A stretch of 28,029 nt of DNA. Origin: Clostridia bacterium (GTDB taxonomy: Bacteria; Bacillota_A; Clostridia; Oscillospirales; CAG-272). Positions 1 through 28,029 of this stretch are shown piece by piece. The position numbers were made by a program, and so were the translations under genes. The notes beneath the pieces are model-generated. The model did no database searches and had not been told where the DNA came from. It saw nothing but the letters and a program-made list of their open reading frames with translations. The stretch spans positions 1 to 28,029 of the forward strand of contig JAFVXC010000020.1 of assembly GCA_017501345.1 (NCBI GenBank), read 5' to 3'. The first letter of the stretch is position 1. Every line of letters begins with the position of its first letter.

Positions 1-13
1 CATAACGAAAAGA

Positions 14-43
14 GGGCTTGTCTCACCAAGGTGAGACAAGCCC
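14..43 (-). terminator. Rho-independent terminator after znuB
   Basis: Fourteen-bp perfect inverted repeat (GGGCTTGTCTCACC and its complement, 14-27 and 30-43). It is followed on the minus strand by TCTTTTC and on the plus strand by six T's (45-50), so it may work in both directions. It lies 14 bp past the znuB stop. Its stem resembles that of the terminator at 3256-3285. Confidence 0.85.
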
Positions 44-57
44 CTTTTTTATCTCCT

Positions 58-3233: not shown

Positions 3234-3255
3234 GGGCTGACGAATATAAAAAGAA

Positions 3256-3285
3256 GGGACTGTCTCACCTTAGTGAGACAGCCCC
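3256..3285 (-). terminator. Terminator after the 3306-4568 lipoprotein gene
   Basis: Inverted repeat of 13-bp arms with one mismatch (3256-3268 and 3273-3285), followed on the minus strand by TTCTTTTT. It separates the lipoprotein gene from the zur promoter. Confidence 0.85.
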
Positions 3286-3305
3286 TTTTATCGGATCTTT
3301 CCCGA

Positions 3306-4809: not shown

Positions 4810-4835
4810 ACACAAGTCGCGAGCAAAGCGGCTAT

Positions 4836-4924
4836 GGAGAGATGGCTGAGCTGGTCTAAGGCGCACGACTGGAAATCGTGTTTGGGCTAATACCCCAACG
4901 AGGGTTCGAATCCCTCTCTCTCCG
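4836..4924 (+). tRNA. tRNA-Ser (anticodon GGA)
   Basis: All arms can be drawn. The acceptor GGAGAGA (4836-4842) pairs with TCTCTCC (4917-4923), and the discriminator is G4924. The anticodon stem CACGA/TCGTG encloses loop CTGGAAA, giving anticodon GGA, which reads UCC and UCU. A long variable arm (about TTTGGGCTAATACCCCAAC) is typical of serine tRNAs. The T arm is GAGGG-TTCGAAT-CCCTC. No CCA is encoded. The sequence from 4910 through the terminator is duplicated 171 bp downstream. Confidence 0.96.
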
Positions 4925-4964
4925 TAAACGAAAAGCAGGGCTTTTGCCCTGCTTTTTGTTTACG
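4923..4964 (+). terminator. Terminator of tRNA-Ser with extended dyad
   Basis: Arms of 19 bp (4923-4941 and 4946-4964, 18 of 19 paired) around a TTTT loop, with GCAGGGC as core stem and a run of T's inside the 3' arm. The symmetry reaches the last two nucleotides of the mature tRNA. Confidence 0.88.
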
Positions 4965-5094
4965 AAGTGGGATGTGTTGAGAAACCTCTGCAAGGTGCAG
5001 GGAGAAAATGGATTACCGGAAAGAAGCGAGCACCTTGCCGCAATAGGGAGCGGCAACGCCGCGAGTCTTTGCTGTTCGACATCCCTCTCTCTCC

Positions 5095-5134
5095 GTAAAC
5101 AAAAAGCAGGGCTTTTGCCCTGCTTTTTGTTTAC
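5095..5134. terminator. Second copy of the terminator hairpin, bidirectional
   Basis: A perfect 18-bp inverted repeat (5095-5112 and 5117-5134) around TTTT. On the minus strand it ends TTTTTGTTTAC and lies 20 bp past the CYTH gene stop, so it can terminate that gene. On the plus strand it closes the repeat element. Confidence 0.85.
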
Positions 5135-5154
5135 ATCTGAAAGGATTCGAGCTC

Positions 5155-5928
5155 TCACCCGATCTCATCGTACGGCACTTCCCTTGCGAGCCGCGCGTTC
5201 TTGTACCGCACATCCTCCGTCACCTCACGGATCACGCGGAAATAGGGCGGGAAATCGATCGGCGCGTCGCTCTTCTCCGCTGTCTCAAGCTCCACCGTCG
5301 CACGGTCGCTCCAGAACGGATATACGTCAAGCTCAAAATACTGCCCCGCGTAGAGAATGCACCACCGCGTTTTCTCGATCGGTGTCCGTTCGGGATCCGC
5401 TCTTTGAAGCAGCACACGGTATTCCTCCTCCGTGATCTCCCGCTCCCACTCCTCGCTCGTCTGTCGGTCGATCCTCCGCTTCAGCGTGTGCGTATAAGCG
5501 ATCGCACCGCCGTAGTCCCGCATCCGTACGCGCTCGGCTGTTCCCTCGTCCGACGTAAGATAGGTCTGCACGATATGCGACCGCGCCGCGAAGGGCGATG
5601 CCCCCAACCTCGCAAGCGCGGGATACGTCACAAGAAACTTCCGCTCACATTCCTCCCCGCTTGCGAGGGCCTTCTGCTCGCGCAGAAGCGCGGCGCGCTG
5701 CTCCTCCATCGTCTCTCCCGCAATCACCCTGAGGTGCGGATGCCCGATAAAGCCCCTCACCGTCTCGGGAGAGATCTCCTCCGCACGGCGTGCAAAGACG
5801 AATACAGCGGCATAGTCCGCCCATACCGCAGCCCCGCCACACGGATCCCACGTGTAGACGTGACCGTCCGGCAGAGCGTCAAGCACCGAGGGCGAGATCA
5901 GAGACGAACCGAGAAAAGCAAGCTTCAT
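5155..5928 (-). CDS. CYTH-domain protein with an uncharacterised N-terminal extension
   Basis: The product has 257 residues. From about residue 92 it matches the CYTH / triphosphate tunnel fold. The diagnostic ExExK is E93-C-E95-R-K97, followed by repeated basic and acidic strands such as RVRMRDYGG, THTLKRRI, EREITEEEY and YFELDVYPFWSDRATVELE. This family hydrolyses triphosphates (thiamine triphosphate, inorganic tripolyphosphate) or, rarely, makes cAMP; the substrate cannot be told from sequence. Residues 1-91 (MKLAFLGSSLISPSVLDALP onward) are unfamiliar; they are rich in Ala and Val and could be a small alpha/beta domain. The start at 5928 has AAAGGAG upstream. The frame remains open further 5' but runs past the promoter. 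It is monocistronic between the two RNA genes. Confidence 0.85.
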   Translation of the reverse strand: MKLAFLGSSLISPSVLDALPDGHVYTWDPCGGAAVWADYAAVFVFARRAEEISPETVRGFIGHPHLRVIAGETMEEQRAALLREQKALASGEECERKFLVTYPALARLGASPFAARSHIVQTYLTSDEGTAERVRMRDYGGAIAYTHTLKRRIDRQTSEEWEREITEEEYRVLLQRADPERTPIEKTRWCILYAGQYFELDVYPFWSDRATVELETAEKSDAPIDFPPYFRVIREVTEDVRYKNARLAREVPYDEIG

Positions 5929-6006
5929 ACGAAATACACTCCTTTCAGAGAGAGCGCGCGCGGGAGAGAGAGAGAATAGAAATATAAGCCCTACCGCCAT
6001 ACCTCC

Positions 6007-6035
6007 ATTATAGCACACGCGCCCCCCGTTTTCAA
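6007..6035 (-). promoter_or_regulatory. Promoter of the CYTH gene
   Basis: On the minus strand TTGAAA (6035-6030), 17-bp spacer ending in TGC, TATAAT (6012-6007). The leader is about 70 nt. It is divergent from the tmRNA promoter, whose -35 lies 40 bp away. Confidence 0.85.
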
Positions 6036-6074
6036 TATATTTTTCGGCGGCAAAGCGAAAATTCATCCACCCCC

Positions 6075-6103
6075 TTGACGAAAAGCGAAAAACGGTGTAT
6101 AAT
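6075..6103 (+). promoter_or_regulatory. Promoter of ssrA (tmRNA)
   Basis: TTGACG (6075-6080), 17-bp spacer, TATAAT (6098-6103), 30 bp before the mature tmRNA 5' end. Confidence 0.87.
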
Positions 6104-6133
6104 ATAACCGCAACGTGATATATAATATCATAA

Positions 6134-6497
6134 GGGCCCGTAAAGGTTTCGACGGGGATTTTGAGGTATGATAAGCGCGGCGAGCCGGGCAATCTCGTAA
6201 AAGGCCTAACCTTTAAAATTAAACGCTAACAATAACGTTGCAATGGCTGCCTAACGGCAGTGCCGTAGCCTAAGCGCTACCCGTCCTGCCGAGGAGGATC
6301 ACGGCCTCGGCAAGGGCGTCGACCAGTGATGCACGTGCATCGGCGGTTCGTCCTTGAACCGATCACGCAAAAAAGGGCTGCCCCGAGGGTAAGCGTGTCT
6401 GTTCGCGTACGCGAGGGGGAGAAAAAATAACAGACTGTCCGCGAAGAAGGTTGTACTGAGGGGTTTTCGGACACGGGTTCGATTCCCGCCGGGTCCA
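6134..6497 (+). ncRNA. ssrA: tmRNA (transfer-messenger RNA)
   Basis: Rescues stalled ribosomes by trans-translation together with SmpB. The 5' acceptor GGGCCCG (6134-6140) pairs with CGGGTCC (6490-6496), with discriminator A6497 and no encoded CCA. The tRNA-like ends show the typical AAAGGTTTCGACGGGGATT at the 5' side and ACGGGTTCGATTCCCGCC T arm at the 3' side. The tag frame starts at GCT 6225 and stops at TAA 6252-6254, giving A-N-N-N-V-A-M-A-A. This resembles the B. subtilis tag end NVALAA but with Met in place of Leu. Pseudoknot-like GC-rich segments follow. Length about 364 nt is normal for one-piece tmRNA. Confidence 0.96.
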
Positions 6498-6541
6498 TAA
6501 AAACAAGGGGTGCTTTTGTACCCCTTGTTTTTATGGACCCG
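6490..6541 (+). terminator. Terminator of tmRNA with 22-bp perfect dyad
   Basis: Perfect 22-bp arms (6490-6511 and 6520-6541) around GCTTTTGT, with a core GGGGT/ACCCC and a T5 run inside the 3' arm. The dyad includes CGGGTCCA, the 3' acceptor strand of mature tmRNA, which is re-created in inverse as TGGACCCG. Confidence 0.88.
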
Positions 6542-6860
6542 ACGGATTGGATCAAACCCTGCAAGGTTGCAGGAAACAAACACTTTCACACCTACCTCAC
6601 ACAACCTTGCCGCCGTAAGCGAGCAGGCGCAAGCGCCTGCGAGTCTCGGCTTTCGATCTCCCGCCGGGTCCGGCTTTTGCCAACGCAAACTCGCGATTTC
6701 GCGCCTTGCGCGAGTAATTCGATCTCCCGCCCCCGACGGATTGGATCAAACCCTGCAAGGTTGCAGGAAACAAACACTTTCACGCCTACCTCAAACAACC
6801 TTGCCGCCGTAAGCGAGCAGGCGCAAGCGCCTGCGAGTCTCGGCTTTCGATCTCCCGCCG
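6538..6860 (+). repeat. Two tandem copies of the structured repeat after tmRNA
   Basis: Two 129-bp copies (6538-6666 and 6732-6860) differ at only two positions. Each holds a hairpin CCTGCAAGGTTGCAGG, a long-range pair GCAAGGTTG/CAACCTTGC, a hairpin GCAGGCGCAAGCGCCTGC and an end TTCGATCTCCCGCC that copies the tmRNA T loop and acceptor. The 65 bp between them carries a further hairpin (CTCGCG...CGCGAG) and another TTCGATCTCCCGCC at 6718-6731. No plausible coding frame exists. From 6861 to the TetR promoter only AT-rich sequence is seen. Confidence 0.8.
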
Positions 6861-27508: not shown

Positions 27509-27513
27509 GTTCC

Positions 27514-28029
27514 AAAACAAAAACGGTACGCTGTGCGTACTTCCCCGCCACCCTCACTTCGTCTGCGGCGAAAATTCGCACGCCTTGCCGCTTACGAGCG
27601 AGCTCGACGCGCTCTGCGGCGGCGAATGCGAACCGGATTCTGCGCGCGAGCGCGCAGAGCGCGGGACAACGATGGAGTGGCGGCTCAAAACAAAAACGGT
27701 ACGCTGTGCGTACTTCCCCGCCACCCTCACTTCGCCTGCGGCGAAAATTCGCACGCCTTGCCGCTTACGAGCAAGCTCGACGCGCTCTGCGGCGGCGAAT
27801 GCGAACCGGATTCTGCGCGCGGGCGCGCAGAGCGCGGGACAACGATGGAGTGACGGCTCAAAACAAAAACGGTACGCTGTGCGTACTTCCCCGCCACCCT
27901 CACTTCGCCTGCGGCGAAAATTCGCACGCCTTGCCGCTTACGAGCGAGCTCGACGCGCTCTTCGGCGGCGAATGCGAACCGGATTCTGCGCGCGAGCGCG
28001 CAGAGCACGGGACAACGATGGAGTGACGG
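27514..28029. repeat. 173-bp tandem repeat, three copies, running off the window
   Basis: Copies at 27514-27686, 27687-27859 and 27860-28029 (last cut by the window edge), with a few single-base differences. Each starts AAAACAAAAACGG and holds several palindromes: GTACGCTGTGCGTAC, GCGAAAATTCGC, CGAGCTCG and TCTGCGCGC-GA-GCGCGCAGA. The period is not a multiple of three, so the long frames across it are not repeat proteins. No promoter or gene was found here. Confidence 0.88.

What the first reader, a model, noticed from the sequence alone, without database searches (positions are those of the whole stretch)
4964..6860. Structured repeat family trailing both stable RNA genes, with compensatory base changes
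After tRNA-Ser (4964-5095) and twice after tmRNA (6538-6666, 6732-6860) lie related 115-130-bp elements. Shared landmarks in the same order: AACC(T)CTGCAAGGT, ACCTTGCCGC, GAGC(A)GGC...GCC(T)GCGAGTCT, GCT, TTCGA. The long-range pair is GCAAGGTTG/CAACCTTGC after tmRNA but GCAAGGTGC/GCACCTTGC after tRNA-Ser: both strands changed together. The distal hairpin is GCAGGCGC-AA-GCGCCTGC in one and GCGGC-AA-CGCCGC-like in the other, again keeping the pairing. This points to selection on RNA or single-strand DNA structure rather than chance. I know no named RNA or MITE family with this layout. Either a mini-element that targets tRNA/tmRNA 3' ends, or a trailing RNA made by read-through of the terminator.
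Basis: partly seen in the sequence, partly recalled or inferred. Interest (0 to 1): 0.85.

Follow-up and report, generated by a model that had tools for sequence, protein, structure and literature searches.

The report
Folded cassettes trailing tRNA genes
In a group of uncultured gut Clostridia, many tRNA and tmRNA genes are followed by small folded DNA units that end in a copy of that gene's own 3' end, often with a hairpin whose loop keeps its length while its sequence changes fast, which looks like an undescribed, tRNA-targeting kind of mobile cassette.

Summary
The three window elements are real and homologous: a covariance model built only from other genomes finds all three (E 2e-8, 1.6e-6, 1.6e-6, rough). 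No Rfam family reaches threshold on them. Of 90 relatives' tmRNA genes 13 have such a copy downstream (reversed control 0). Of 91 tRNA genes in three relatives and the window 23 do (22 without a double count), against 17 of 2730 tests with other tRNAs' ends. The copied T-loop is not intact in 21 of 22. The core is a fully paired stem around a 30-33-nt loop; a stem with such a loop, of varied sequence, is found in 15 of 36 elements. Units occur in tandem. Best reading: protein-free, site-specific cassettes that enter tRNA/tmRNA T-arms and rebuild the gene end, perhaps as a folded single strand, as integron attC sites do. They are not integrons by test: no IntI over cut-off (0 of 15 genomes), no attC box pair (0 of 36). 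Movement and the enzyme remain unproven.

The parts
4835..4925 (+). tRNA-Ser(GGA), host gene of the first element
   Evidence: ARAGORN; Rfam RF00005
4924..4963 (+). predicted terminator hairpin of tRNA-Ser (18 bp), duplicated at 5095-5134
   Evidence: fold; direct repeat D14
4964..5080 (+). Ser element body: closing-stem 5' arm GGGATGT 4969-4975, P1 4990-4998/5030-5038 with 31-nt loop, P2 outer 5040-5043/5069-5072, inner 5050-5054/5058-5062
   Evidence: relatives-only model R2 hit 4979-5042, E 2.1e-8
5075..5134 (+). direct copy of the tRNA-Ser 3' end (T-loop with one inserted base, TTCGACATCCC) and of its terminator; ACATCCC 5079-5085 pairs with 4969-4975
   Evidence: D14, 98% over 54 nt; own-end copy score 19
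6134..6500 (+). tmRNA (ssrA), host gene of the second array
   Evidence: ARAGORN; RF00023 151 bits
6500..6531 (+). predicted terminator hairpin of tmRNA
   Evidence: fold
6533..6545 (+). inverted copy of the tmRNA 3' end; extends the terminator palindrome and is the 5' arm of the closing stem
   Evidence: inverted repeat I4; folds
6550..6651 (+). element tm1 core: P1 6561-6569/6602-6610 with 32-nt loop, P2 6612-6615/6647-6650 and 6623-6629/6634-6640
   Evidence: R2 hit 6550-6614, E 1.6e-6
6652..6671 (+). direct copy of the tmRNA 3' end, T-loop with one inserted base (TTCGATCTCCCGCCGGGTCC)
   Evidence: own-end copy score 16
6672..6731 (+). spacer between tm1 and tm2, ending in a further partial copy TTCGATCTCCCGCC (6718-6731)
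   Evidence: read
6732..6860 (+). element tm2, tandem copy of tm1 (98%), P1 6755-6763/6796-6804, ending in a partial tmRNA 3' end copy 6846-6860
   Evidence: D5; R2 hit 6744-6808, E 1.6e-6

Best explanation
The elements are small, protein-free, site-specific mobile cassettes. They sit at the T-arm of tRNA and tmRNA genes, and each carries a new copy of the host gene's 3' end (T-loop to CCA) and often its terminator, so the gene stays whole while the old 3' end is pushed to the far side of the cassette. Because the gene end is rebuilt, further units can be added in tandem. The likely substrate is a folded single strand: in many units an inverted copy of the gene end pairs with the far copy (closing stem), the T-loop in that far copy is interrupted by one base or a small hairpin, and a fully paired stem with a 30-33-nt loop plus further hairpins closes the end. 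This is how integron attC sites work, with tRNA ends in place of attI. Shown: the anatomy, homology, tRNA link, own-end copies, tandem units. Inferred: movement by recombination, the single-strand substrate, an enzyme acting in trans. Unknown: the enzyme, and why the loop length is held while its sequence drifts.
For: Own 3'-end copies: 13 of 90 relatives' tmRNA genes (9 of the 90 have under 200 nt downstream), reversed control 0 of 91; 23 of 91 tRNA genes, 22 after removing tRNA-Gly(tcc) in L229 which re-counts the neighbouring His unit, against 17 of 2730 with other tRNAs' ends and 2 of 98 with reversed ends; inverted own ends 16 of 91 against 35 of 2730. T-loop 9-mer not intact in 21 of 22 far copies. 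Related cores at tRNA-Ser, Glu, Leu, Lys/Asn, His and tmRNA. Pattern for the core: 18 hits in 7 of 295 genomes, reversed pattern 1; of 14 newly fetched loci 10 hold a tRNA or tmRNA gene, always on the hit's strand, the other 4 hold a copy of a tmRNA, Glu or Leu 3' end. P1: 276 of 276 cells paired, 5 of 9 pairs changed on both sides, 0 of 500 shuffles on five measures. Loop: 23 of 36 elements (His counted twice) have an 8-bp Watson-Crick stem, 15 of these with loop 29-34 nt; shuffled mean 0.2 per set; in 57 tRNA flanks without a copy 33 have such a stem, 4 with that loop. L144 and L169 share one tmRNA unit, and L144 has a further one in front of it. Tandem units with near-identical frames and different loops: G001 and G684 at tRNA-Glu, G001 at Ser. 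A 279-aa HNH ORF lies between two units.
Against: No integron-type integrase above cut-off in 15 element genomes and no attC box pair. No excision, circle, transfer or precise empty site was seen. The inverted copy is not universal: of 31 tRNAs with either copy only 8 score for both, and the Glu units with this core show none by eye. Several cassettes carry a terminator nearly identical to the local one (window Ser, L152, L176), and in L144 the start of the extra unit resembles the local flank, as tandem duplication would give. In relatives-only alignment A6 two of five covariation measures do not beat shuffles (127 and 421 of 500), since 7 of 9 pairs never vary there. 21 of 36 elements lack the 29-34-nt-loop stem at the 8-bp threshold. 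A low own-end score need not mean an empty site: L269 scores 8 yet holds a diverged unit.
Confidence: 0.4

Rival explanations
1. Replication by-product: the palindromic terminators behind tRNA genes cause template switching and slippage. Fold-back synthesis makes the inverted gene-end copies and perfect hairpins, slippage makes tandem units, and hairpin arms keep matching because one arm is rewritten from the other, so no recombinase and no selection are needed.
For: Perfect or near-perfect extended palindromes of the gene end: window 6486-6545, L179, which has no direct copy. P1 changes on both sides with hardly any wobble step: 23 cells changed on both sides, 1 on one side. Terminator copied with the gene end. 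Pseudo-tRNA-Lys copies with hairpins set into their loops (L317, L352, read by eye). In 3 of 12 loci with a duplicated start the second unit stops at or within 7 nt past the P1 5' arm (L225, L264, L271), in 3 at or before the terminator's end.
Against: Does not predict one conserved core (ACCCTGCAAGRTGC) at unrelated tRNAs and across genomes, nor a loop held at 30-33 nt.
Confidence: 0.27
2. Selected structured RNA: a trailer made by read-through that acts on tRNA/tmRNA maturation or as a separate small RNA.
For: All 10 core loci with a gene have the unit on the gene's strand; conserved stem with compensatory changes; tm1 folds far better than shuffles (z -5.5); sense strand folds lower in 26 of 36; more G-U on the sense strand in 24 core loci (10.1% against 7.3%).
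Against: Lies behind a predicted terminator; G-U share slightly lower on the sense strand in the 36-element set (6.6% against 7.4%); the opposite strand of tm1 also folds far better than shuffles as single-strand DNA (z -4.9); patchy detection at the same tRNA between relatives; units without a host gene within 1.5 kb (L313, L315).
Confidence: 0.16
3. Scars of larger tRNA-integrated phages or conjugative elements: the far gene-end copy is an attR left after deletion of the body.
For: A direct copy of the tRNA 3' end is the classic mark of integrase insertion (recalled knowledge); an ORF lies between two units in G684 (L304 2667-3506); 3 of 10 loci with integrase-like matches hold tRNA genes.
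Against: Independent deletions would not leave related folded cores at Glu, Leu, Lys/Asn, Ser, His and tmRNA; four viral-contig pattern scans gave only matches unlike the elements by eye; phage and plasmid records gave only short partial matches.
Confidence: 0.12

Closest known systems
Integron cassette arrays and attC sites
   Same: Tandem units with poorly conserved sequence but conserved fold; ends pair in many units; extra base or hairpin in the copied T-loop; an ORF between two units in one case
   Different: No integron integrase above cut-off in 15 genomes; no RYYYAAC/GTTRRRY box pair in 36 units; the partner site is the host tRNA or tmRNA gene end; the window units are too short for an ordinary gene
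REP / REPIN repeats with RAYT (Y1) transposases
   Same: Short, protein-free palindromic repeats outside genes; single-strand substrate (recalled; papers seen as listing only)
   Different: Bound to tRNA/tmRNA 3' ends and carrying that gene's end; about 100-300 bp; Y1 transposase not found in 7 of 15 element genomes (draft genomes)
tRNA-targeting integrative elements (prophages, ICEs, islands)
   Same: Direct copy of the tRNA 3' end flanks the insert, so the gene is rebuilt; tandem accretion
   Different: Inserts of about 100-350 bp, too short for an integrase; related folded core; T-loop in the far copy not intact in 21 of 22
Structured RNA families of Rfam 15
   Same: Compensatory stems
   Different: No family reaches its gathering score on the elements; the permissive scan gives below-threshold matches, mainly to unrelated hairpin models over the terminators

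Membership tests
Integron / attC cassette array | integron-type tyrosine recombinase IntI in the genome (TIGR02249 over its cut-off) | tested here: not met
   0 of 15 element genomes; weaker matches in all 15 and in all 14 controls; genomes are drafts
Integron / attC cassette array | complementary R boxes RYYYAAC and GTTRRRY at the two ends of the site | tested here: not met
   first box 1 of 36, second 0 of 36, both 0; shuffled means 1.8, 1.5, 0.08
Integron / attC cassette array | recombination of the folded single strand | not testable with these tools
   only the fold and paired changes are seen
REP / REPIN (RAYT) | Y1 transposase (PF01797) in the host genome | tested here: inconclusive
   present in 8 of 15, not found in 7 of 15 including G001, which has 4 core pattern hits; genomes are drafts
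REP / REPIN (RAYT) | 20-40 bp palindromes dispersed between genes | tested here: not met
   units of about 100 bp or more, tied to tRNA/tmRNA ends
tRNA-targeting integrative element | direct copy of the tRNA 3' end on the far side | tested here: met
   13 of 90 tmRNA and 22 of 91 tRNA genes
tRNA-targeting integrative element | integrase gene inside the insert | tested here: not met
   copies counted lie within 500-600 nt of the gene; window inserts are about 115-140 bp
known structured RNA family (Rfam 15) | covariance-model match over gathering score | tested here: not met
   only tRNA and tmRNA in the window
CRISPR-like array | unrelated spacers between constant repeats | tested here: not met
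   loops differ strongly between like frames but those of G684 remain recognisably related by eye; the second Glu unit of G001 shows little likeness

The most novel reading that the evidence does not exclude
A new class of folded-site recombination cassettes in gut Clostridia: tRNA and tmRNA gene ends serve as attachment sites in place of attI, each cassette carries a fresh copy of the gene end it enters and often a matching pairing arm, and a stem with a loop of 30-33 nt of hypervariable sequence is the hallmark recognised by an unknown enzyme acting in trans. The constant loop length across unrelated stem sequences would be a structural ruler.
Probability: 0.28. Interest if true: 0.92.

Novelty: new variant of a known kind. 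Interest (0 to 1): 0.8.

Why it matters
tRNA gene ends are the classic doors for mobile DNA, yet here about a quarter of the tRNA genes examined in three genomes carry protein-free folded units that copy the gene end they sit on. If they move, this is a cassette system outside integrons that uses many different tRNAs as attachment sites and could shape assembly breaks, tRNA copy number and gene capture in an uncultured gut group. If they do not move, it is a striking case of palindrome-driven evolution in which both arms of a hairpin change together without selection on RNA, which would be a warning for covariation-based RNA discovery.

Tried and rejected
Exact landmark patterns outside the right taxon gave only chance-level hits: order of G002, 4 of 245 genomes, reversed control in 2; viral contigs 3, 24, 0 and 4 stretches, unlike the elements by eye. 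Plasmid and phage records: short partial matches only. Genes around the elements in the window do not explain them: a CYTH protein lies between the two arrays on the other strand, and the 26 of 80 CYTH loci scanned hold no tRNA gene. A Watson-Crick-biased count of wobble pairs was set aside because the finder penalises G-U; the fairer count is, and it is mixed. Similar 3' flanks of tRNA-Trp/Gln and Val/Arg turned out to be other repeats. The ten loci given for TIGR02249 matches hold no core match; three hold tRNA genes. The core model finds strong hits in 2 of 295 order-level genomes and weak ones (E 1e-4 to 1e-2 per genome) in 10 more, so the core subtype is narrow; other subtypes share the long-loop stem. 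CRISPR-like spacer capture was considered and dropped: loops in G684 are related.

Literature: six answered searches (listings with the starts of abstracts) and passages of PMC8040213 showed nothing like this. The library lacks most subscription journals and bioRxiv, so this is weak evidence of absence.
Full report
CHECK. The window holds tRNA-Ser(GGA) 4835-4925 and tmRNA 6134-6500. The three elements and their landmarks are there. A second stem also changed on both sides: GCAA/TTGC against GCCG/CGGC. On folding energy alone only tm1 stands well clear of shuffles (z -5.5; tm2 -2.0, Ser -1.8).

The Ser element ends in a copy of the tRNA-Ser 3' end and terminator (4910-4963 = 5081-5134, 98%). 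tm1 ends in the tmRNA 3' end (6652-6671) and begins with its inverted copy, which prolongs the terminator into a 26-nt palindrome. In both, the copied T-loop holds one extra base.

RELATIVES. No genome is held for the window. Relatives came through CYTH proteins and an amidohydrolase (46 genomes; best 76% identity, G004). In the family of G004, tmRNA was sought in 118 genomes (99 over the cut-off) and the downstream DNA of 90 tmRNA genes read. Thirteen of 90 carry a direct copy of their own 3' end within 500 nt (score 11 or more), with a reversed-query control of 0 of 91, window included; 9 of the 90 have under 200 nt downstream. In G001, G244 and G571 tRNA genes were located (105 matches) and most flanks fetched; 98 distinct genes were read, the window's included. 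Of 91 with at least 150 nt downstream 23 have a copy of their own end. One (tRNA-Gly(tcc) in L229) is the neighbouring His unit seen twice, so 22. Tests with other tRNAs' ends gave 17 of 2730, with reversed ends 2 of 98. Val, Tyr, Met, Ser, Thr, Leu, Gly, His, Lys, Arg, Ala, Glu and Trp genes are represented.

THE CORE. A sequence pattern for P1 hit 18 places in 7 of 295 family genomes, all 18 perfectly paired although the pattern let the variable positions change independently; the reversed pattern hit once. Of the 14 loci newly fetched from these hits, 10 hold a tRNA or tmRNA gene on the same strand; the other 4 carry a tmRNA, Glu or Leu 3' end copy without the gene in the locus. Two more G001 units are at contig ends with Glu copies. 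In an alignment of 31 cores (A5) all 276 cells with letters on both sides pair, 5 of 9 pairs change on both sides, and no shuffle of 500 matches any of five measures. Caveats: four rows (G001_tm, G244_Ser, G244_Lys, G001_His) were picked by eye or with patterns that nearly fix both arms, three of them are aligned with a gap in the 3' arm, and three rows are the window's own. Without these seven and the G244 tmRNA row (A6, 23 rows) all 207 cells pair, but only 2 pairs vary; two measures no longer beat shuffles (127 and 421 of 500), three do (0 of 500). A model from A6 finds all three window elements (E 2.1e-8, 1.6e-6, 1.6e-6, rough calibration). Beyond the family the core subtype is rare (strong hits in 2 of 295 order-level genomes).

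THE LOOP. A search for the longest Watson-Crick stem with any loop of 15-60 nt, blind to sequence, finds stems of 8 bp or more in 23 of 36 elements; 15 have loops of 29-34 nt, 14 of them 31-33 (the His unit is counted twice). Shuffled elements give 0.2 per set of 36. Of 57 tRNA flanks without a copy 33 have such a stem, 4 with that loop length; some of these flanks may hold diverged units. The stem sequences differ widely (GCAAGATGC, GAACGTTTC, GTTTGCGC and others). In tRNA-Glu units of G684 and G001 the frame is near-identical while loops differ strongly; those of G684 remain recognisably related. In the tandem Ser units of G001 the loop holds a small hairpin changed on both arms (GCCGCTTTGGC against GCCCCGTGGGC).

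ENDS. The T-loop 9-mer of the far copy is intact in 1 of 22 tRNA units. The rest carry one extra base, a hairpin with TAG at its foot, or a copy that starts later. Inverted own-end copies score in 16 of 91 against 35 of 2730 for other ends; 8 of 31 genes score for both copies, so the closing stem is common but not universal. Tandem units are seen at tmRNA (window, L176, L194; a partial second one in L208), Tyr, Glu, Leu, Lys/Asn and Ser. Of 12 loci whose start is duplicated behind the copy (prefix score 20 or more), 3 stop at or within 7 nt past the P1 5' arm (L225, L264, L271), 3 at or before the terminator's end, 4 run on through a further unit and 2 stop elsewhere. An HNH-domain ORF of 279 aa lies between two Glu units of G684, and tRNA-Lys genes sit inside Asn-type units of G671 and G686. 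At 13 anticodons one of the three genomes scores 11 or more and another under 9. That suggests gain and loss, but a low score can mean a diverged unit, as in L269 (score 8; unit seen), and Met genes of different kinds are pooled. Two related tmRNA loci, L169 and L144, share one unit while L144 has another in front of it.

MECHANISM. Shown: anatomy, homology, tRNA link, own-end copies, tandem growth. Inferred: the units are site-specific cassettes that enter the T-arm and rebuild the gene end, with a folded single strand as substrate. The parallel to integron attC sites is in how it works: pairing of the two ends rebuilds a site, an unpaired insert marks the stem, a variable branched tip closes it, cassettes stack in tandem. 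Membership fails: no integron integrase over cut-off in 15 genomes and no attC box pair in 36 units. REP/RAYT fails on size and site, and Y1 transposases were not found in 7 of 15 genomes. Phage or island scars would explain the gene-end copies but not the shared core. A mutational origin by template switching at palindromic terminators is the strongest rival: it explains inverted copies, perfect arms and near absence of wobble steps in P1 (23 double against 1 single change), but not the shared core or the loop length. A functional trailer RNA is not excluded: strand tests are mixed (G-U share 6.6% sense, 7.4% antisense in 36 elements; 10.1% and 7.3% in 24 core loci; sense folds lower in 26 of 36).

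NOVELTY. No Rfam 15 family reaches threshold on the elements, and six answered searches of an open-access library plus passages of one paper showed none, which is weak evidence. I rate it a new variant of a known kind (folded, site-specific mobile cassettes) while the enzyme is unknown.

Noticed in passing
window 27513-28029: Three tandem copies of a 173-bp repeat (98% identical), running off the contig end; unrelated to the tRNA units as far as read.
   Followed up: no
L312 226-355, also L317, L318: A complete tRNA-Lys gene sits in the loop of the hairpin behind tRNA-Asn (AAAAGAAAATCCATATGGAACA ... TGTTCCATATGGATTTTCTTTTT in L312), followed by a unit carrying the Asn 3' end.
   Followed up: partly
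L317 (G686) and L352 (G001): Degenerate tRNA-Lys copies with hairpins inserted in the D-loop and anticodon loop (and in L352 the T-loop region), read by eye.
   Followed up: no
L304 2667-3506: 279-aa ORF with an HNH endonuclease domain and an N-terminal hydrophobic stretch between two tRNA-Glu units of G684.
   Followed up: partly
L320/L324 against L310/L316 (G669 contig 89): Leu-type units lie 12 kb from the tRNA-Leu array in opposite orientation, as if a segment had been inverted between units.
   Followed up: no
L261/L245 and L255/L252: Other repeat families (ATTCATTATTC palindromes; ATGATG-rich hairpin strings) also lie just behind tRNA genes at different tRNAs of one genome.
   Followed up: partly
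L173, L191 and other tmRNA or tRNA loci: Several contigs of these draft genomes end at or just behind a tmRNA or tRNA gene, as expected if arrays of units break assembly.
   Followed up: no
window 8-47 and 3250-3289: Two similar palindromic terminator-like repeats (75% identical) flank the metal ABC transporter and Fur-family gene region.
   Followed up: no
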